From NCBI RefSeq assembly GCF_001638985.1, contig NW_017265140.1:1724304-1788303 (forward strand): a stretch of 64,000 nucleotides of DNA, in the 5' to 3' direction. The translations under genes were made by a program, and so were the position numbers. Of this stretch, positions 25,007 through 46,427 are shown in pieces. This stretch comes from Phycomyces blakesleeanus NRRL 1555(-) (Eukaryota; Mucoromycota; Mucoromycetes; Mucorales; Phycomycetaceae). The notes under the pieces are model-generated. The model searched no databases and was not told where the DNA came from. It saw nothing but the letters and a program-made list of their open reading frames with translations. The stretch's first letter is position 1. Each line of letters opens with the position of its first letter.

Positions 25007-25317
25007 TGTCGTTCCCGATCTGGGTTGGTCTTCCTTTTACTATAACAAAGTCAAAAGGTCAAACCCACTGGGGATCAAGGAGTATACGTAAAATCAAAGA
25101 GAGGATAAAAGATACTTTTTATTGATATGAATTGAATTGTCTTATATAGTTTTCTAAACTAATACTGCGCATTATCCGCAGTAGTTATTATTTATATTTA
25201 ATTAAGGAAATAGTCATTATACTGCGGTTAATGCTCAGAAAGATATTACTGCGCATAAAGAAGTACTGCGGTTAACTATCTTCAGATTTTACGGATTCAT
25301 CAAAATAATGTCCGACA
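25007..25317 (-). repeat. 3' LTR of the Ty3/gypsy element
   Basis: 311 bp. On the minus strand it runs TGTCGGACATT…GGGAACGACA. It matches 38048-38358 with few differences. The pol stop codon lies inside it (25272). Confidence 0.95.
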
Positions 25318-38047: not shown

Positions 38048-38358
38048 TGTCGTTCCCGATCTGGGTTGGTCTTCCTTTTACTATAACAAAGTCAAAAGGT
38101 CAAACCCACTGGGGATCAAGGAGTATACGTAAAATCAAAGAGAGGATAAAAGATACTTTTTATTGATATGAATTGAATTGTCTTATATAGTTTTCTAAAC
38201 TAATACTGCGCATTATCCGCAGTAGTTATTATTTATATTTAATTAAAGAAATAGTCATTATACTGCGGTTAATGCTCAGAAAGATATTACTGCGCATAAA
38301 AAAGTACTGCAGTTAACTATCTACAGATTTTACAGATACATCAAAATAATATCAGACA
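38048..38358 (-). repeat. 5' LTR of the Ty3/gypsy element
   Basis: 311 bp, the same length and nearly the same sequence as 25007-25317. Minus-strand start TGTCTGATATT, end CGACA. It ends 19 bp from the tRNA-Ala 3' end. Confidence 0.95.
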
Positions 38359-38377
38359 ATTACAAGAACATCTAAAA

Positions 38378-38450
38378 TGGAGAAGCTGGGCGTCGATCCC
38401 AGTGCCTCTCGCATGCTAAGCGAGCGCTCTACCATTTGAGCTACATCCCC
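38378..38450 (-). tRNA. tRNA-Ala (AGC anticodon), LINE target
   Basis: Minus-strand cloverleaf: acceptor GGGGATG with CTTCTCC plus discriminator A, anticodon stem CTCGC/GCGAG with loop TTAGCAT (anticodon AGC), T arm CTGGG-ATCGACG-CCCAG. Pair 3-70 is G-U, the alanine identity element. Pair 6-67 is a U-U mismatch. TTTT follows the 3' end (38374-38377). The first 14 nt (tgagctacatcccc on the plus strand, 38437-38450) are repeated at 43194-43207 and 43724-43737 as LINE target duplications. Confidence 0.93.
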
Positions 38451-38658
38451 AATCTCTCTTTCACGTAAGCTACTGTTACACAAGACATAACAAAAAAATT
38501 GGTTGCATCCATACAAAAGCTTCATCAATCCGTCCTACATCTTGTTCAAAACGTTACATCCATTGTCAAAAACATTGCATCCATTACCACTGTTGCCTTA
38601 TCTATCAGCAGAAAAAATTTCAGCCGATTCCGACAACTCTTCATTTTTGCGATCTCAA

Positions 38659-39570
38659 ATGTCAACATTGCTGCCATCCTCTGTCATGCAGGGAATGTCA
38701 CCCGATCTCGCCTCATTTCTGGGGAACATGCAGGCCCAATTCATGTCACTACAACAACGTACCAATGAACTTGAATCTCTTGCCGCAACTAATGCTAGAT
38801 TAACTACTCAATTAGTTAATGCGGAAAAGCTAATTGCTGATCTCAGATCTCAATTAGCATCTCAGGGCAATTGCCAAATTACAACAAATGCATCAATATC
38901 ATCTGCACCAACCACACCCAAGGAGCCTGGCACTGAGGCTTCTACATGGGCTACAACTGCTGCTGCTGCTCACAACTCTGTTGTTGTTCCTACTGCTCTT
39001 TCTGTTTGCAAGACTCCAAGACCTCCTTCTGTTCGCCAGGTTGCTGCTTCTGCTAGAATGTTTGCCATTCCCACTGGTCTCAAAGGATATCAATATGTGT
39101 ATATCCCACGTTCACGTCGTCTCACACATAGAGAAGTGCGCAACTCTTTGAAAACACTTGGTGTTGATACTGGCCGCATCTTGGATATCAATTTTCCTGC
39201 CAAAGATGTAGTTGGCATCCTAGTTCACAACCAGTATGCTGAGAAATTCCAGACCACTCTGACCACAGTTGCCATTGAGATCTTAGATGCGTTTGACCCT
39301 TTGGATCCCAAAAACATTGCAGATCCCAAATATAAGTCTCTTTCTGATTCAGAGCTAGAAGAAGTTGCTGCTGAACTTCATTCTGATCGTTGTATGAAGG
39401 CTCTCAAGTACCTTCGTCCTCATGTTGCTGTTCCTGTTGGTCATTTCTTTTGTGATCAAGGCTGGATCTCTAAGGAAGATATTCCTGTCCATTCTGTTTC
39501 TGGTCCTGGTGCTGGTATTCATGATTTCCAATCACCATCTTGTCGTACCTCTGTTGCAATGTCTGAATGA
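38659..39570 (+). CDS. LINE-A ORF1 protein
   Basis: 303 residues from the ATG at 38659, chosen because the corresponding Met is conserved in copy C and earlier frame sequence only opens at TTG. A coiled-coil-like segment (LQQRTNELESLAATNARLTT, QLVNAEKLIADLRSQL) precedes a Ser/Thr/Pro linker. The conserved C-terminal domain shows GYQYVYIPRSRRLTHREVR, TLGVDTGRILDINFPAKDVV, FDPLDPKNIADPKY and VPVGHFFCDQGWIS. No CCHC knuckle is seen. ORF1 proteins bind LINE RNA, which is the likely role. The C-terminal domain is not one I can name. The stop overlaps the ORF2 start. Confidence 0.85.
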   Translation: MSTLLPSSVMQGMSPDLASFLGNMQAQFMSLQQRTNELESLAATNARLTTQLVNAEKLIADLRSQLASQGNCQITTNASISSAPTTPKEPGTEASTWATTAAAAHNSVVVPTALSVCKTPRPPSVRQVAASARMFAIPTGLKGYQYVYIPRSRRLTHREVRNSLKTLGVDTGRILDINFPAKDVVGILVHNQYAEKFQTTLTTVAIEILDAFDPLDPKNIADPKYKSLSDSELEEVAAELHSDRCMKALKYLRPHVAVPVGHFFCDQGWISKEDIPVHSVSGPGAGIHDFQSPSCRTSVAMSE

Positions 39571-42500
39571 GTGAAATCTCATTAGGACTTTGGAATGCTA
39601 ATGGTCTGCAGCCTCGTGCAATTTATGATGTTCTTCAACACTGTCACTCTCTACATATGCTTTTTATCACTGAAACATGGCTTCTTCCCCCATCTCGTCT
39701 CCCCACTTCTTGGTCCCAGATTCATCTTTATGGTTCACCTGTAGCTGGCAACTACAGAGGTTCTATGGGTGTTTCTGTTCTTATTTCTCCATCTTGTCCT
39801 TATCCTGTCACTCAGATTCCTATGTCATCTAATTATGCTTTAGCCATCAAGATTGGTTCCCTCAGAATTGTATGCCTGTACTTACCGCCCTCTATGTCCA
39901 CCCATGATGCTCTTGCAGTTCTCTCATCCATTCCTTTGACCAATGACACTATTATCTGCGGCGATTTTAATTCACGTTTGGGTTCACTTACTGGTGACTA
40001 TGCTACTAACACTCGAGGTCTTGCTCTTTGTCAATGGTTAGAAGAACGTGCTCTTACTGTTGTCAATGGCCAGCTCTCACCATGCATATCTACATTCATT
40101 TCATTCCACCAAAATGTGGAGATAAGCAGTATCATTGATCTGTTTATCACTAATATGTCCCTCATCAATGCCACTCTCAACATTCATACCGACCTCTCAC
40201 TCAACTCTGACCACCGTCTGCTTTCACTTTCATTTACATATGCCATCAATCCAACATCACATGCACCACCACCATCTCGCAAAACATGGAACCTCTCACA
40301 TCTTCAAGAACCTGATGTTCTCAAACTATATGCCCACACATTTGTCACTAATTCCACCAACCTCAAATCCACTTTGCAATCGACCTTCGAACACCCTCCT
40401 TCCTCACGTCCACCAATTGATGCACTAACTGATGAATTCAACTCACTCATTTATAATTCTTTAAGTAGCTCAATTGGTAACCGTTCTCCCCGTCCTTCCC
40501 ACTGGAAAAAATTCTGGAATCCAGTACTTCAAGCAGCTGCAGAGCACCGCAATTTCTGCTACAAGAAATGGCGCCGTGCATGTGGTATAGACAGAATTCA
40601 TTGGTGGGATAAGCATCTCAAAGCGCAGGCAGAATTCCGACATCAAGTGCAATCATCTAAGCGCCAATCATGGCATGCTTTCTGCAAATCAATGGAACAA
40701 GACTTTTCCAAAGCAACATCAAAGATCAAGCTACTCAAACGCCGATGGCAGCCTCAGCACATGTTTCAACATAGTGATGGACCAGCAACAGCAGCAACAA
40801 TTATGTGTGAGCATCTTGCATCTGTATACAGTGGCAGTATCCTCCCAGATCAGCGTCCTCCTCCTCCTCTTCACAGTACTAGTCTGCCTTTTGCCTCTGC
40901 CAACTCGCCATTTGTTTCTTCAGTAGTAGAGGGATGCATGCAATTTATGCCTAACCGCAAGGCACCAGGCCCAGATCACATCAGAGCAGAAATGTTGAAA
41001 GTAATTCGACCACAAATTGCTCCACTACTCTCACTCTTGTTCACCATCTGTTGGCAATGGTCATATGTACCTGTTATTTGGCGTCAGGCTCAAGTTTTTC
41101 CCATTTACAAAAAGGGAGATCCATCAATTGCTGCTAACTATCAACCTATTTCACTAACTTCTGTTGTGCGGAAACTGATGGAAATGTGTATTTCTCCAGT
41201 GCTTCACAAGTTTTCCCCTCCTCTGGATGTTGCTCAGGGTGGTTTCCGTCCTAGACGTGGTGCCATGGACCAAGCTCTCTGTCTGCATGACCTCATGAAA
41301 GCACACTTCCACCGCCATCACCATTATCCTGTTGTTGCATTCTTAGACATAAAGGCAGCTTATGATACAGTAGACCGACGAGTCATTTGGGATGCTCTTG
41401 CTAGACGTCACACACCACCAGCTTTACTTGGACTTCTTGTCAATATGTTTGATAATGTCTCTATATCTGTTCTTCTTGGCAACTTCTCTTCTCATTCTTT
41501 TTCTCCCACCACAGGCGTCCTTCAAGGTTCTGTTCTCAGTCCACATTTGTATTCAATCTATATCAACTCCCTGCCACCAATACTCCGCACAGTTGCATCA
41601 CCACTCACCTCAACACATATCCCATCAACCTCTCCTTCCTCATTGGATGCTTACAATTCTCTTCTTGCCCCATCAGATGTGAATGACTTTCAACACATTC
41701 ACTTGCCTACTGCCATTAACAGTCTTCTTTTTGCTGATGATGTTGCTATCTTTGGCTCTGTCACTGATGTTCAGAGTATGCTTGACCTTGCTGCCCAACA
41801 CTCCTTCCAGCTTGGCTACCGTTGGAGTCCTTCAAAATGTGCTGTACTCTATCCTCCTTCACGATCTTTACCACGTTCTACTATCTCTCTGTATGGCGAG
41901 TTGCTTCCTGCAGTAAATGAGTTTATATACTTGGGTATACCTTTCTGTAACAAAGGCATCTTTGGACCGTCTGTTGTCACTCATCGTCGTTCTGGAGCAT
42001 TGGCTGCTATGGCAACTCTTACTGCTGTTGGTGCATGTAGATCTGGTTTCAATTTGCTCTTAAGTTCACGTCTGTTCAAAACCTTTATACGACCAAAATT
42101 CGAGTATGGTCTTGCAATCACATGTCTTTTGCAAAAAGATGTTTTACTTCTAGAGAAAATTCAAGATAAATGCTTGCGAATGATTGTTGGCGGCCATGCA
42201 ACTTCATCTACTGCAGTCTTGAAACATATCTGCAACCTGCCCAGTATGGCTTTTCGCGTTGACATTCTCAAAACAAAATTTTGTCTTCGGGCACACACTC
42301 TTCCTTCTGGTTGTCTTCTCTCTCTGCTCCATTCTCATCATCTCCAAGCATCAACACTATCCACTCTTCACACAAACCCTCTTTTTGCCAGCATTCCCCC
42401 TGATCTTAATTGCTCCAGCCGCATAAAACTATCCAAGCACTTTGAGTCTTTTAGACAAGAAAAGTTTGCTCACTTTCGTCTCACCAACACTAAGATTCTC

Positions 42501-42887
42501 ATCCAAGCTTGCCGCCCTCTTCTTGAAGTTGATCCTGTATTGTTTCTTCCTGCTACACGCATAGAACGTGGCCGTCTAGTACGTTGGAGAATGGGCTGGT
42601 TGCCTGGTAAGCCAAAGGAGTGTGCATGTGGCTTTGATCATACTTCAAGACGCCATCTCCAATTCTGCATCACAATCCCATCTCAGCTGTTCTCTCAACT
42701 TCCAGCACCACCCACAGATGAAGACAACATCATTGACTTTGCTATATCAGCACTACCAATCTCGTCTACACATCCAAGCCCTCTATATTGGAAAGCTCTT
42801 CTTACAATACTATGGCATATTGACATGCTATGCAATCCTAATGGCAACTACACACATGAAACCGATCATGGTTCTCTCTGGCACTAG
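39567..42887 (+). CDS. LINE-A ORF2: APE endonuclease and reverse transcriptase
   Basis: 1106 residues, uninterrupted. The N-terminal AP-like endonuclease shows LGLWNANGLQ, FITETWL, CGDFNSRLG, SSIIDLFITN and NSDHRLLSL (catalytic Glu, Asp/Asn and His in place). The RT spans about residues 460-760: NRKAPGPDHIRAEML, FPIYKKGDPSIAANYQPISL, AFLDIKAAYDTVD, TGVLQGSVLSPHLYSIYIN and the FADD box near residue 721. A C-terminal Cys/His motif (CACGFDHTSRRHLQFC) lies near 1020. It would nick the target and copy the LINE RNA by target-primed reverse transcription. The endonuclease must recognise the tRNA-Ala 5' part if the site repeats are target duplications. The start ATG overlaps the ORF1 stop as ATGA. 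Confidence 0.94.
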   Translation: MSEISLGLWNANGLQPRAIYDVLQHCHSLHMLFITETWLLPPSRLPTSWSQIHLYGSPVAGNYRGSMGVSVLISPSCPYPVTQIPMSSNYALAIKIGSLRIVCLYLPPSMSTHDALAVLSSIPLTNDTIICGDFNSRLGSLTGDYATNTRGLALCQWLEERALTVVNGQLSPCISTFISFHQNVEISSIIDLFITNMSLINATLNIHTDLSLNSDHRLLSLSFTYAINPTSHAPPPSRKTWNLSHLQEPDVLKLYAHTFVTNSTNLKSTLQSTFEHPPSSRPPIDALTDEFNSLIYNSLSSSIGNRSPRPSHWKKFWNPVLQAAAEHRNFCYKKWRRACGIDRIHWWDKHLKAQAEFRHQVQSSKRQSWHAFCKSMEQDFSKATSKIKLLKRRWQPQHMFQHSDGPATAATIMCEHLASVYSGSILPDQRPPPPLHSTSLPFASANSPFVSSVVEGCMQFMPNRKAPGPDHIRAEMLKVIRPQIAPLLSLLFTICWQWSYVPVIWRQAQVFPIYKKGDPSIAANYQPISLTSVVRKLMEMCISPVLHKFSPPLDVAQGGFRPRRGAMDQALCLHDLMKAHFHRHHHYPVVAFLDIKAAYDTVDRRVIWDALARRHTPPALLGLLVNMFDNVSISVLLGNFSSHSFSPTTGVLQGSVLSPHLYSIYINSLPPILRTVASPLTSTHIPSTSPSSLDAYNSLLAPSDVNDFQHIHLPTAINSLLFADDVAIFGSVTDVQSMLDLAAQHSFQLGYRWSPSKCAVLYPPSRSLPRSTISLYGELLPAVNEFIYLGIPFCNKGIFGPSVVTHRRSGALAAMATLTAVGACRSGFNLLLSSRLFKTFIRPKFEYGLAITCLLQKDVLLLEKIQDKCLRMIVGGHATSSTAVLKHICNLPSMAFRVDILKTKFCLRAHTLPSGCLLSLLHSHHLQASTLSTLHTNPLFASIPPDLNCSSRIKLSKHFESFRQEKFAHFRLTNTKILIQACRPLLEVDPVLFLPATRIERGRLVRWRMGWLPGKPKECACGFDHTSRRHLQFCITIPSQLFSQLPAPPTDEDNIIDFAISALPISSTHPSPLYWKALLTILWHIDMLCNPNGNYTHETDHGSLWH

Positions 42888-43193
42888 CTCTAATAATTTA
42901 ATATCTGTTTTCTTTTACTTCTTTTCTTCTTATTTTTGTCTTCTCATTCATGAAAGGTTTCTAGATCTGCAATTCTGTCTCCTCCCTTTCACTGTTACAA
43001 CTTTTTACACAGCTGCAAAGTGGAGAGCAGGTTCAGTCTTTTAGCTTAGTATTGTTTATTTCTCTTCTTCTATTCATTTTTTTGTCTTTTGTGATCCTTT
43101 TGGACTTTTTTTTTTCTTTTTCTTTTGTACTTGGGAGGCTATATGATCTATAGATCGCCAGCGATATCTCCTTAATAAAAATAATTTTTAACC

Positions 43194-43207
43194 TGAGCTA
43201 CATCCCC
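43194..43207. repeat. LINE target duplication (second copy of tRNA-Ala nt 1-14)
   Basis: tgagctacatcccc, identical to 38437-38450. It separates LINE A and B. It is not a tRNA gene. Confidence 0.93.
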
Positions 43208-43723
43208 CCTGACCAAGATCAGATACACAGAATTAATTTTGCCATCACATCCTTGCCTTTGTCATCTCAAGAACCGCGACCTGCTTACTGGATACCACTG
43301 CTGACTATTCTCTGGCACATAGATGTTATATGTAATCCTGATGGTGACTATTCACATGAGACTGAACATGGTGCTCTTTGGATATAATTTAGACTTTTTC
43401 TTTTCTTTCATAGCTCTTCACTTTTCATTGTTCTTTACTCCCTTTATCTCTCTTCTTTCTCTTTTGTCCTTTGCTGTCTGAAAAGTTCTTTGTTCTGCAA
43501 TTCTGTCTCCTCCCTTTCACTGTTACAACTATTTTCACAGCTGCAAAGTGGAGAGCAGATTCAGCCATTGAAGCTAGTATGATTTGATCTTCTCTTTCCC
43601 CTCTCTTTTTTTTGTCTTTTGTGATCCCTTAGGACTTTTTTATATCTTCTTTTTGTACTTTGGAGGCTATATGATCTATAGATCGCCAGCAATATCTCCT
43701 TTAATAAAATATAATCTTTAACC
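43208..43723 (+). mobile_element. LINE copy B, 5'-truncated
   Basis: 516 bp between two tgagctacatcccc copies. It starts inside ORF2 (about 58 codons, INFAITSLPLSSQE, LLTILWHIDVICNPDGDYSH, ending at TAA 43385-43387) and keeps the 3' UTR to the same TTTAACC end as copy A. Five-prime truncation with exact target duplications is what incomplete target-primed reverse transcription leaves. Confidence 0.92.
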
Positions 43724-43737
43724 TGAGCTACATCCCC
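43724..43737. repeat. LINE target duplication (third copy of tRNA-Ala nt 1-14)
   Basis: tgagctacatcccc, separating LINE B and C. Confidence 0.93.
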
Positions 43738-46427
43738 ACTGCTCTTTCGCTTAAGCATTTTATTTGCCTGGTTCCAAAATTTTATTTTTGACGAATCCAC
43801 ATATAAAGTGTATCCATCCATCAACATCTTTACGCAAAACGATCCATCCATCACGAAAAACGTACCTCCCATTGCCAAAAGTAGTGCAGTTCTTGTCCTT
43901 GGTATCCCAGCTGTCAGCAAAAAAAATTTCAGCTCAATCAGACAACATCACGCCATCTGCATTCTCAATCCCAATGGCTAATTTGCAAATCGGCAACAAG
44001 CAGGGATTGCCAACCGAGCTTACCTCATTCCTGACAACATTGCAGGCACAAATCATGAATGTGCAAAACAGAACCGACCAGTTGGAGCGACTTGCAGCAG
44101 AGAATGCAAGACTAACTACTGAATTAGACCATGCTAGAGCAACAAATGCTAATCTGCAGAAGCAATTAGGATCTCAGAGTGCACCTGAAAAAAACTTTTC
44201 AGAAATTTCACTTTCGAACCCAGCCGGCGCAGTAGGTGCTCCTGACAAAAACAAAGAACCAGGTCTGGAAGCCTCCACTTGGGCTACTAAAGCCAGTGTT
44301 TCTCTTCCTGTAACTGCCCCAAAAATGTCTACTGTTCCCTCTGCTCGCCGAATTGCAGCTTCTGTCCGTATGTTTGCTCTTCCCTCTGGTCCTTCAGGTT
44401 ATGAATATGTTTATATTCCAAGATCAAGACGCCTTAAGCACAAAGAAGTCCGTTCCTCTCTCCGCACTCTTGGTGTGGATTCTTCTCGACTTTTGGACAT
44501 TAACTTCCCAGCCAGAGGTGTCATTGGCATCCTTGTTCATGTCCAGTATGCTGATACATTTAAGGCCAAACTGACAACTGCTTCTGTTGAGATTTTGGAC
44601 GCATTTGATCCACTTGATCCTGATAATGTTGCTGATCCCAAGTATGCATCTCTGTCCACTCATGAACTTGCCAACACTGCTGCCATGCTTCACCATGATA
44701 GATGTCTCCAAGCCCTACAGTTCCTGCGCCCACACGTTGCTATCCCAGTTGGTCACTTCTTTTGTGAGGAAGGGTGGATCAGTGAAGATGAAATACCAAC
44801 ACGTACTACTCTTACCAATGCTACTGGCGGGTCTTTGTTCAAACGTCAGCGCAGCTCATCAGTCACTATGTCTGAATGAGTAATCTCAATATCGGATTAT
44901 GGAATGCCAATGGCCTGCAACCCAGAGCCATTCAAGATACCCTTCAACACTGTCAGTCCTTACATATGCTCTTCATTACAGAAACATGGCTTCTCTCTCC
45001 CTCACATCTTCCCACATCATGGTCACAAATTCACTTGTATGGGTCTCCTGTAGCTGGCACCTATAGGGGCTCTATGGGTGTTTCTGTTCTCATATCACCT
45101 CACTGTCCTTATGCCGTCACTCAAATACCTATGCCCTCCAAATATGCTCTGGCTGTCAAAATTGGCTCACTCAGAATTGTATGCTTATATCTTCCACCAA
45201 ATATGCCCACTCACGATGTCCTACATGTACTCTCTTCCATTCCTTTAACACATGATACCATTCTTTGTGGTGACTTCAATGCAAGACTTGGCTCTGTTAC
45301 TGGTGACTATGCATCAAATTCTCGTGGACTGGCACTATGTTCTTGGATAGAAGAGAGATTTCTATCAGTTGTAAATGCAGATCTTGCACCTTGCATACCA
45401 ACATATATTTTTTTCCGCAACAACTATGAAATCAGCAGTATTATTGACCTCTTGATAACTAATATGCCACTCATCAATCCTTCTCTTCATATTGCTACTG
45501 ACTTGTCCCTTGGATCAGATCATTGCCTTTTGTCACTTTCCTTTGCCTATGATCTACAGCACTCTACCAATATGCCACCACCATTATGCAAGTCATGGAA
45601 CCTCTCACGCCTCAATGAACCTGATGTCCATGCTCTTTATGCTCATATTTTCACTCAAAACTCAACCTCCCTCCTTTCCACCTTGCAAGACATTGTACAG
45701 AATCCACCACTCACTAGACCCAACATTGATGCTATCACTGATGAGTTCAATTTACTCATTTATGACTCATTAAATAGCTCAATTGGACATCGACCCTCTC
45801 GCCCCAACCATTGGAAATCCTTCTGGAATGTGGCATTACAAACAGCAGCAGATCATCGTAACCAATGTTACAAAAAATGGCGCCTAGCAATAGGTATTGA
45901 CAAAGTTGTTTGGTGGACTAAACACAAGCATGCACAGGCCGAATTCCGATCTCAGGTTCAGCAAGCAAAACGTCAGTCTTGGCATGTCTTTTGTCAGTCT
46001 ATGGAACGTGACTTCAGCAAAGCAACATCAAAGATAAAGCAGTTAAAACGCCGTAGACAGCCGCAACATACTTTCCAGCACGATGATGGACCAGCCGTAG
46101 CAGCAGCAACAATGTGTGACTATTTGGCAACAGTATATAGTGGACATATACTTCCAGCAACCCGACCACCAGCACCAATGACCACTTGTAACAGTGTGCC
46201 TTTTGCCTCTGATGACTCTCCCTTTACCTCACCAATTGTAGAGGAATTCATGCAATTTATGCCTAACCGCAAGGTACCAGGACCAGACCATATCAGAGCT
46301 GAAATGCTAAAACCTGTAAAAACACATGTCTCACCCATTCTTACTTTATTATTTACAGTTTGCTGGCAATGGTCATATGTTCCAAGTTTGTGCCGCCAAG
46401 CCCAGGTCTTCCCAATCTTTAAGAAGC
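43738..46427 (+). mobile_element. LINE copy C, 3' part lost
   Basis: It starts at the third target duplication with a full-length-type 5' leader and ends abruptly in the RT at 46427, where the CACTGGGG terminus of CACTA-like copy 3 begins. The remaining RT and 3' UTR are not found further right. About 70-75% protein identity to copy A, so it is not a recent sister copy. Confidence 0.88.
43974..44879 (+). CDS. LINE-C ORF1 protein
   Basis: 301 residues from the ATG at 43974, aligned with the copy A start. It has the same plan: coiled coil (VQNRTDQLERLAAENARLTT, ELDHARATNANLQKQLG), linker with PGLEASTWATKA, and conserved domain (GYEYVYIPRSRRLKHKEVRS, LLDINFPARGVIGILVH, FDPLDPDNVADPKY, VGHFFCEEGWIS). 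It ends MSE with the stop overlapping ORF2 as ATGA. Uninterrupted, although the element itself is broken downstream. Confidence 0.85.
   Translation: MANLQIGNKQGLPTELTSFLTTLQAQIMNVQNRTDQLERLAAENARLTTELDHARATNANLQKQLGSQSAPEKNFSEISLSNPAGAVGAPDKNKEPGLEASTWATKASVSLPVTAPKMSTVPSARRIAASVRMFALPSGPSGYEYVYIPRSRRLKHKEVRSSLRTLGVDSSRLLDINFPARGVIGILVHVQYADTFKAKLTTASVEILDAFDPLDPDNVADPKYASLSTHELANTAAMLHHDRCLQALQFLRPHVAIPVGHFFCEEGWISEDEIPTRTTLTNATGGSLFKRQRSSSVTMSE

What the first reader, a model, noticed from the sequence alone, without database searches (positions are those of the whole stretch)
38378..46427. A LINE family that appears to insert specifically inside tRNA-Ala, stacking copies outward
The 14-bp sequence tgagctacatcccc is nt 1-14 of the tRNA-Ala gene (minus strand). 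It occurs exactly at the tRNA, between LINE A and B, and between B and C. Each LINE 3' end (…TTTAACC) abuts it and each 5' end follows it. So three independent insertions used the same cleavage point, after tRNA nt 14 on the tRNA-sense strand, and each duplication rebuilt a whole tRNA. This predicts age order: A (complete) youngest, B (5'-truncated) middle, C (broken) oldest. tRNA-targeting LINEs are known in Dictyostelium (TRE elements, near rather than within the genes). An APE-type LINE cutting within a tRNA coding sequence in a fungus seems little described.
Basis: partly seen in the sequence, partly recalled or inferred. Interest (0 to 1): 0.88.

Follow-up and report, generated by a model that had tools for sequence, protein, structure and literature searches.

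The report
LINE that inserts inside tRNA genes
In the fungus Phycomyces a LINE retrotransposon sits at one fixed point near the start of tRNA genes, and because each insertion repeats the gene's first 14 bases the tRNA gene is left whole and can be hit again, a way for a jumping gene to live in essential genes without breaking them.

Summary
The host is Phycomyces blakesleeanus. I examined 63 3' ends of this LINE family genome-wide (a lower bound for the family). Of these, 61 are joined to nt 1-14 of a tRNA gene: Ala 30, Thr 18, Ile 5, Tyr 4, Phe 2, Lys 2 (49 exact, 12 with 1-3 changes). One lies in a tRNA-Glu gene in another register; one is unassigned. All 44 exact tRNA-Ala 14-mers are accounted for: 15 tRNA genes and 29 LINE junctions. 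Occupied are 13 of 15 tRNA-Ala(AGC) genes (11 of 13 without two duplicated pairs) and 10 of 12 tRNA-Thr(AGT), but 0 of 37 sampled genes of other tRNA types. Up to five copies stack on one tRNA and different subfamilies are neighbours, so tandem duplication of one insertion does not explain them. "Inside tRNA-Ala" should read "inside the A box of several tRNA genes". Best model: the apurinic-type endonuclease nicks the tRNA-sense strand after nt 14, target-primed reverse transcription follows, and the 14-bp duplication rebuilds the tRNA. tRNA-specific restriction-type LINEs and A-box DNA transposons (Dada) are known; an apurinic-type, tRNA-rebuilding LINE was not found in my ten paper searches. 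New variant of a known kind.

The parts
38378..38450 (-). tRNA-Ala(AGC), the target gene, complete (mature part)
   Evidence: ARAGORN 38377-38451; identical to 14 other tRNA-Ala genes of the genome
38437..38450 (+). 14-bp target duplication, tRNA-proximal copy (reverse complement of tRNA nt 1-14)
38451..43193 (+). LINE A, complete, 4743 bp, with one extra A at the 5' junction compared with the commonest form
   Evidence: its first 1481 bp are 99.3-99.5% identical to four copies at other tRNA-Ala genes
38659..39570 (+). ORF1 of LINE A from its first ATG (no Pfam family over its cut-off); stop overlaps the ORF2 start (ATGA)
   Evidence: start codon is my choice, one search lists the frame from a TTG at 38503
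39567..42887 (+). ORF2 of LINE A, 1106 aa: apurinic-type endonuclease (motifs ITETW, GDFN, SDH), reverse transcriptase (FADD), C-terminal Cys-His motif at 42621
   Evidence: Pfam PF14529 9.4e-13, PF03372 3.6e-6, PF00078 1.9e-21; motif positions, their meaning recalled
43194..43207 (+). 14-bp duplication between LINE A and LINE B
43208..43723 (+). LINE B, 5'-truncated copy of the second subfamily (last 243 bp identical to a copy at C18:473843)
43724..43737 (+). 14-bp duplication between LINE B and LINE C
43738..46427 (+). LINE C, second subfamily, intact 5' end, cut off at LINE position 2690 inside the reverse transcriptase frame
43174..43193 (+). AATAAA 20 bp before the LINE A 3' end, then the end itself (TTTTTAACC), no poly(A) tail

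Best explanation
A tRNA-gene-specific, apurinic-endonuclease (APE) type LINE family of Phycomyces blakesleeanus. Shown by sequence: copies are joined at a fixed 3' end (TTTAACC in most, no poly(A)) to tRNA nt 14, and at the 5' end to a second copy of tRNA nt 1-14 that, in the innermost copy, continues into the complete tRNA gene; the LINE lies head to head with the tRNA; the same site is used repeatedly; several tRNA types are hit. Inferred: the ORF2 endonuclease nicks the tRNA-sense strand after nt 14 (TRGCTCA^R, inside the A box); the free 3' end primes reverse transcription of the LINE RNA from its 3' end; the other strand is cut 14 bp away, which at these genes is exactly the mature 5' end; fill-in makes the 14-bp duplication. 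The tRNA keeps both internal promoter boxes and its downstream part, with the LINE's 5' end as its new upstream flank. Because the target is recreated, insertions stack outward. Also inferred: selectivity needs more than TRGCTCA, either a longer stretch of the D arm or help from the Pol III machinery.
For: 3' ends: 56 places by pattern, reversed-pattern control 0, plus 7 further ends; 61 of 63 at tRNA nt 1-14. Accounting of the exact Ala 14-mer: 44 = 15 tRNA genes + 29 LINE 3' junctions; of the exact Thr 14-mer: 30 = 12 tRNA + 17 LINE junctions + 1 unrelated. 5' ends: of 60 motif places (reversed control 3) 48 directly follow a tRNA 14-mer and 1 a Thr/Ala chimera. Occupancy: Ala 13/15, Thr 10/12 against 0/37 sampled genes of other tRNA types, Fisher p = 1.2e-13 with the two groups chosen after the fact and two duplicated Ala pairs included (3 of 3 positive controls found). 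Stacks of 3 (gaps 4742-4800 bp) and 5 copies (4741-4800 bp and one 295-bp piece) at one tRNA. APE and RT domains. The tRNA-Glu case has a 14-bp duplication with one difference, cut after nt 6 (TCCTCA^A), which suggests that the 14-bp spacing is a ruler, not recognition of the tRNA start.
Against: No biochemistry; strand order of the nicks is inferred from junctions. TRGCTCA is also in Lys (0 of 7 sampled occupied), Cys (0 of 4) and Thr-CGT (0 of 1), so the core is not sufficient; two decayed Lys-like junctions exist nevertheless. One end, TGAGCTAGGCTGAA at C44:139856, is not assigned to a tRNA (4 differences from the nearest). Some copies have unequal flanks, for instance Ala on one side and Thr on the other at C44:84069-88825, which points to recombination between stacks. 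11 of 60 5'-motif places are not at tRNA 14-mers; one of them, C4:2966614, is an A-like LINE 5' end preceded by other sequence, and the old copy at C38:250 kb likewise.
Confidence: 0.93

Rival explanations
1. Tandem duplication: one LINE inserted once at the tRNA and the unit LINE + 14-mer was later duplicated by unequal crossing-over.
For: Recombination and duplication do occur: a copy at C44 has Ala and Thr 14-mers on its two sides, C35 and C24 share blocks at 99.97-100%, and two pairs of occupied tRNA-Ala genes have identical LINE flanks (C35:439799 with C10:1561272; C44:114995 with C44:93582).
Against: Neighbours are of different subfamilies (A and B 81.5%, A and C 74.8% DNA identity), have different truncation points and different junction bases (none 31, C 7, G 4, GC 2, A 2, CC 1, T 1 of 48). 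Even counting each duplicated pair once, 11 tRNA-Ala and 10 tRNA-Thr genes carry their own copies.
Confidence: 0.03
2. Targeting is mainly by tethering to the Pol III transcription complex (as TRE5-A ORF1 protein with TFIIIB), the endonuclease only choosing the nearest CTCA.
For: 62 of 63 ends lie at tRNA-derived sequence, although TRGCTCA should occur thousands of times in 53 Mb (my estimate, not counted); the off-register case is again in a tRNA gene. TRE5-A ORF1 protein interacts with TFIIIB subunits (PMC5911963, passages).
Against: Single-base precision across 61 ends is unlike TRE5, TRE3 and Ty1, which insert over windows of some ten to hundreds of bases (PMC5911963, passages). Lys and Cys genes, presumably also bound by Pol III factors, are not occupied in the sample.
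Confidence: 0.3
3. The 14-mer belongs to the LINE itself and insertion is by homology or annealing of a read-through RNA, not by target cutting.
For: A LINE RNA reading through into the 14-mer could anneal to the cut tRNA strand. At C1:62313 a Thr 14-mer is followed by 12 bases of the Ala 14-mer and then a LINE 5' end.
Against: At the occupied genes read, the outer 14-mer is of the same tRNA type as the gene apart from mosaic stacks, and subfamily C is found at both Ala (12) and Thr (13) with the fitting 14-mer.
Confidence: 0.05

Closest known systems
NeSL-1_TV (tRNA-Pro), LIN15_SM (tRNA-Arg), LIN25_SM (tRNA-Glu): NeSL-related non-LTR elements (Kojima and Jurka 2015, PMC4640811, passages)
   Same: Non-LTR elements specific for tRNA genes
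   Different: They belong to a lineage with a restriction-like endonuclease and each is listed for one tRNA type, in planaria (LIN) and, as recalled, Trichomonas (TV); here an APE endonuclease, a fungus, several tRNA types, and a duplication that rebuilds the tRNA. Their duplications were not in the passages I saw
Dada DNA transposons of fish and Perkinsus (PMC3706591, PMC8869645, passages)
   Same: Many are inserted in the A box; the duplications there are tRNA nt 8-13, TAGCTC in three Perkinsus families, overlapping the sequence used here; various tRNA types
   Different: DNA transposons with a DDE transposase and 6-7 bp duplications inside the gene; the paper speaks of tRNA genes disrupted by Dada
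TRE5/TRE3 and NLTR-A/NLTR-B of dictyostelids (PMC5006619, PMC5911963, passages)
   Same: LINEs that live at tRNA genes; NLTR-A lies 2-6 bp upstream of the mature tRNA
   Different: Insert beside the gene over a window, not inside it; NLTR-A and -B carry RNase H; the passages name no duplication of the tRNA start
Site-specific APE LINEs of the R1 and Tx1 clades; Keno, Mutsu, Dewa as examples of site-specific elements (passages of PMC3706591 and PMC4640811; clade of each and the rest recalled)
   Same: APE-type LINEs with precise targets in multicopy sequences
   Different: Targets include rDNA, U2 snRNA (Keno), 5S (Mutsu) and the spacer of tRNA-Leu (Dewa), not the tRNA coding part
Grem-LINE1 of Mucor (PMC7377519, passages)
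   Same: L1-like two-ORF LINEs of Mucoromycotina
   Different: Reported from pericentric regions; tRNA is not mentioned in that paper's main text (0 occurrences); sequence relation not tested here

Membership tests
APE-type non-LTR retrotransposon (LINE) | ORF2 with apurinic-type endonuclease followed by reverse transcriptase | tested here: met
   PF14529, PF03372 and PF00078 in order; motifs; solved LINE-1 ORF2p matched over query 64-674
APE-type non-LTR retrotransposon (LINE) | 5'-truncated copies and target duplications of a few to some 20 bp | tested here: met
   B and others truncated at differing points; 14-bp duplications
APE-type non-LTR retrotransposon (LINE) | Insertion by target-primed reverse transcription | not testable with these tools
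   Consistent with junctions only
Target-specific element | Most copies at one base position of one kind of multicopy target | tested here: met
   61 of 63 examined 3' ends at tRNA nt 14/15
tRNA-targeting restriction-type LINEs (NeSL/LIN) | Restriction-like endonuclease, no APE domain | tested here: not met
   APE domain upstream of the RT; no other endonuclease family in Pfam at E 0.1
Dictyostelid TRE/NLTR | Insertion outside the tRNA gene in a window | tested here: not met
   Junction inside the gene at a fixed base
R1 or Tx1 clade | Place in the RT tree within that clade | not tested
   No named reference sequences at hand; no RNase H domain in Pfam at E 0.1
Grem-LINE1 | Sequence relation to the Mucor elements | tested here: inconclusive
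   Named Mucor, Rhizopus and Umbelopsis proteins match at 38-54% identity among the 120 listed of 326, but none is labelled Grem-LINE1

The most novel reading that the evidence does not exclude
A Mucoromycota lineage of APE LINEs dedicated to the tRNA A box, in which the 14-bp stagger equals the distance from the nick to the tRNA start, so that every insertion rebuilds a working tRNA gene with the LINE's 5' end as its upstream flank. The LINE would then be transcribed divergently from the open tRNA chromatin (the Thr/Ala chimera at C1:62313 is what an RNA started inside a tRNA-Ala gene would leave). Host supply of tRNA-Ala(AGC) and tRNA-Thr(AGT) would come mostly from genes with a LINE as 5' flank, and subfamilies would shift between tRNA types (clear subfamily-A full 5' ends 13 of 13 at Ala, a 14th A-like end being the chimera; C 12 Ala, 13 Thr, 1 Ile).
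Probability: 0.4. Interest if true: 0.88.

Novelty: new variant of a known kind. Interest (0 to 1): 0.74.

Why it matters
It points to a third way for a retrotransposon to live in essential genes: neither beside the gene nor by sacrificing some copies, but inside it with the gene restored. It is a natural case of an APE endonuclease with base-precise preference for a sequence shared by several tRNA genes, whose insertion recreates its own landing site. It makes testable how such an endonuclease gains specificity, whether Pol III factors take part, and what happens to tRNA expression when most genes of one type have a mobile element as 5' flank. Phycomyces is a laboratory organism, so strains and transcripts can be examined.

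Tried and rejected
Tandem duplication of one insertion: rejected by subfamily, truncation and junction differences, although some whole loci are duplicated. Ala-only targeting: rejected. Age order by divergence: in the window not decidable, all three copies have near-identical relatives. In the six stacks that I compared, ORF2 stop counts from the tRNA outward rise in three (C24:872180 0,0,1; C44:93582 0,5,5; C12:106538 0,6), stay 0 in two (C24:66687, C1:34658) and fall in one unclear case (C4:2960821 8,4, where other sequence lies between). This is weak support only. The duplicated blocks C24/C35 did not date the proximal insertion, because at C35 the LINE sequence stops inside an element.

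Genome-wide ORF2 search scored 42 of 306 candidates, and the DNA searches 40 of 75 and 40 of 79, so copy numbers are lower bounds. My first 5'-end pattern had a wrong fixed spacing and found 3 places; one search replaced it. Two fetched stretches meant to hold target tRNAs missed them (C25:352900, C28:191300), as did C15:1068850, where later placed the tRNA-Ile at 1068741. ARAGORN names the CCGGCTTTAGCTCA gene tRNA-Asn with a 9-base intron; I read it as tRNA-Tyr(GTA) with an intron, because a separate tRNA-Asn(GTT) without intron exists; that reading rests on recalled knowledge. In one search the LINE end was located with a list of end motifs chosen after looking, followed by a T; all 62 rows gave a match. 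No structure prediction was run.
Full report
Host. The best named protein match to ORF2 is from Phycomyces blakesleeanus NRRL 1555, on a contig of 1,834,031 bases, the length of the contig that holds the window. The genome has 53.5 Mb in 60 contigs; the window is C7:1724304-1788303.

Observation. LINE A has open ORF1 and ORF2 frames that overlap by ATGA. ORF2 holds an APE-type endonuclease and a reverse transcriptase.

Genome-wide test of the 3' end. A pattern from the conserved LINE 3' region finds 56 places at up to 3 mismatches, 0 for the reversed pattern. Seven further 3' ends came from ORF2 copies and 14-mers outside that list. Sequence following the 63 ends: tRNA-Ala nt 1-14 in 30 (29 exact), Thr 18 (17 exact), Ile 5 (1 exact), Tyr 4 (0 exact), Phe 2 (2 exact), Lys 2 (0 exact), tRNA-Glu in another register 1, unassigned 1. 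The 12 inexact ones differ by 1-3 bases, 18 changes in all, of which 17 are C to T or G to A. At the tRNA genes read in full the gene-side copy is intact, which suggests that selection keeps only that copy. The last seven LINE bases are TTTAACC in 51 of the 62 ends, TTTAATC in 8, other in 3.

Accounting of the 14-mers. The exact Ala 14-mer occurs 44 times, its reversed control never: 15 are tRNA-Ala genes and 29 are LINE 3' junctions. The exact Thr 14-mer occurs 30 times: 12 tRNA-Thr(AGT) genes, 17 LINE junctions, 1 unrelated place, C27:309909.

Occupancy. Of 15 tRNA-Ala(AGC) genes 13 have LINE sequence upstream: 10 with a full LINE 5' end, 2 with truncated LINEs directly, and 1 (C10:538901) with 45 foreign bases and then a truncated LINE; C25:374721 and C3:2581498 are empty. 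Two pairs are duplicates rather than separate events: C35:439799 and C10:1561272 are identical over 1481 bp upstream and 1300 bp downstream, and C44:114995 and C44:93582 are identical over 1480 bp upstream and 93% over the first 174 bp downstream; counted once each, 11 of 13. Of 12 tRNA-Thr(AGT) genes 10 are occupied (7 by a full 5' end, 3 by truncated LINEs, two of these judged by eye), 2 empty. tRNA-Ile: 3 of 12 places clearly occupied, 3 more probably (by eye). tRNA-Tyr: 3 of 10 places; the pattern used makes 10 a lower bound. As a control I fetched 40 stretches: 37 of the 63 tRNA matches, two Phe candidates and one other place. ARAGORN read 38 of them (Gly 6, Arg 10, Asn 9, Lys 7, Cys 4, Thr-CGT 1, Phe 1); none has LINE sequence in the some 45 bases upstream, while 3 of 3 positive controls do. 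For the 37 without Phe against Ala plus Thr (23 of 27), Fisher p = 1.2e-13; the groups were chosen after seeing the targets and the duplicates are included, so it is descriptive.

5' ends. A 5'-end motif with up to one mismatch has 60 places (reversed control 3): 48 directly follow a tRNA 14-mer, 1 follows a Thr/Ala chimera, 11 do neither. Many of these 14-mers are also the 3' junction of the next LINE, so 3' and 5' counts are not independent. Of the 11, I read six: four (C9:1430608, C42:23907, C26:685047, C1:3258040) and a decayed fifth (C6:1956663) are a related repeat whose C9 copy has an ORF1-like frame; the sixth, C4:2966614, is an A-like LINE end preceded by other sequence. Extra bases between duplication and LINE: none 31, C 7, G 4, GC 2, A 2, CC 1, T 1 of 48. 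Clear subfamily-A 5' ends are at Ala in 13 of 13; a 14th A-like end is the Thr/Ala chimera and one 5'-truncated A copy sits at Thr (C1:39470-43987). Subfamily C: Ala 12, Thr 13, Ile 1 (Fisher 0.0011 for 13:0 against 12:13, copies not independent).

Stacks. At C24:66687 five LINE copies lie on one tRNA-Ala with gaps 4799, 4741, 4799, 295 and 4800 bp; at C24:872180 three, 4742, 4798 and 4800 bp. Both subfamilies occur in each. ORF2 is matched over its full length without stops in 15 of the 43 rows, 6 of type A and 9 of type C, so the family looks recently active.

What sets the site. Targeted genes share TRGCTCA followed by a purine at the cut. nt 1-7 differ between Ala (GGGGATG) and Thr (GCCTTCT) at six of seven positions, so upstream sequence is hardly read in detail. 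Lys, Cys and Thr-CGT have the core but were empty in the sample, so more than the core matters. In the tRNA-Glu case the duplication is TGAGGAGAA(C/T)ATAG: nick after nt 6, TCCTCA^A, and 8 of the 14 bases lie upstream of the gene. I infer that the second cut is set by distance and that, at the A-box sites, this distance reaches the mature 5' end. One case only.

Literature. Ten searches of open-licence PubMed Central papers, and passages of ten papers, gave tRNA-specific LINEs of the restriction-type lineage, Dada transposons at tRNA nt 8-13, and dictyostelid LINEs beside tRNA genes. They gave no APE-type LINE inside a tRNA gene and no description of this family. Subscription papers, Repbase Reports and supplements were not searched, so a prior catalogue entry is possible.

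Noticed in passing
window 25012-25058 and 38053-38099; L001, L005, L015, L073, L107 and overlapping loci: An identical stretch (GATCTGGGTTGGTCTTCC...) lies in the 3' flank of both tRNA genes of the window and, by coordinates, in the 3' flank of five further tRNA genes (11 of 167 loci, several overlapping). 3' flanks of many tRNA-Ala genes share repeats at 87-97%. Possibly an LTR element that also settles at tRNA genes; the loci were fetched around tRNA genes, so this is a biased sample.
   Followed up: partly
C9:1430608, C42:23907, C26:685047, C6:1956663, C1:3258040: A related repeat with the CTCTTTCRCATAAGC-like 5' motif and, at C9, an ORF1-like frame, not at tRNA A boxes. The C1 copy begins some 36 bp after what reads by eye like a tRNA 3' end, but ARAGORN found no tRNA in the stretch before it.
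   Followed up: partly
C1:62313-62340: Thr 14-mer followed by 12 bases of the Ala 14-mer and then a subfamily-A-like 5' end: a trace of a donor RNA that began inside a tRNA-Ala gene, or of recombination.
   Followed up: partly
C38:249950-250350, C46:95500-96000, C4:2966450-2966700: Near older LINE copies other repeats lie where the tRNA would be expected; those at C38 and C46 are alike. Another element may also insert at the tRNA/LINE border.
   Followed up: no
C35:345799-347555 and 349127-352371; C24:884819-886575 and 880003-883247: Near-identical blocks (100% and 99.97%) carrying stacked LINEs and the same outer flank; a recent segmental duplication.
   Followed up: partly
inexact outer 14-mers, e.g. 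C25:362613, C14:379007, C38:245240: 17 of 18 changes are C to T or G to A, fitting decay of methylated repeats; 5mC in Phycomyces is reported almost only from repeat-rich regions (PMC11258239, passages).
   Followed up: partly
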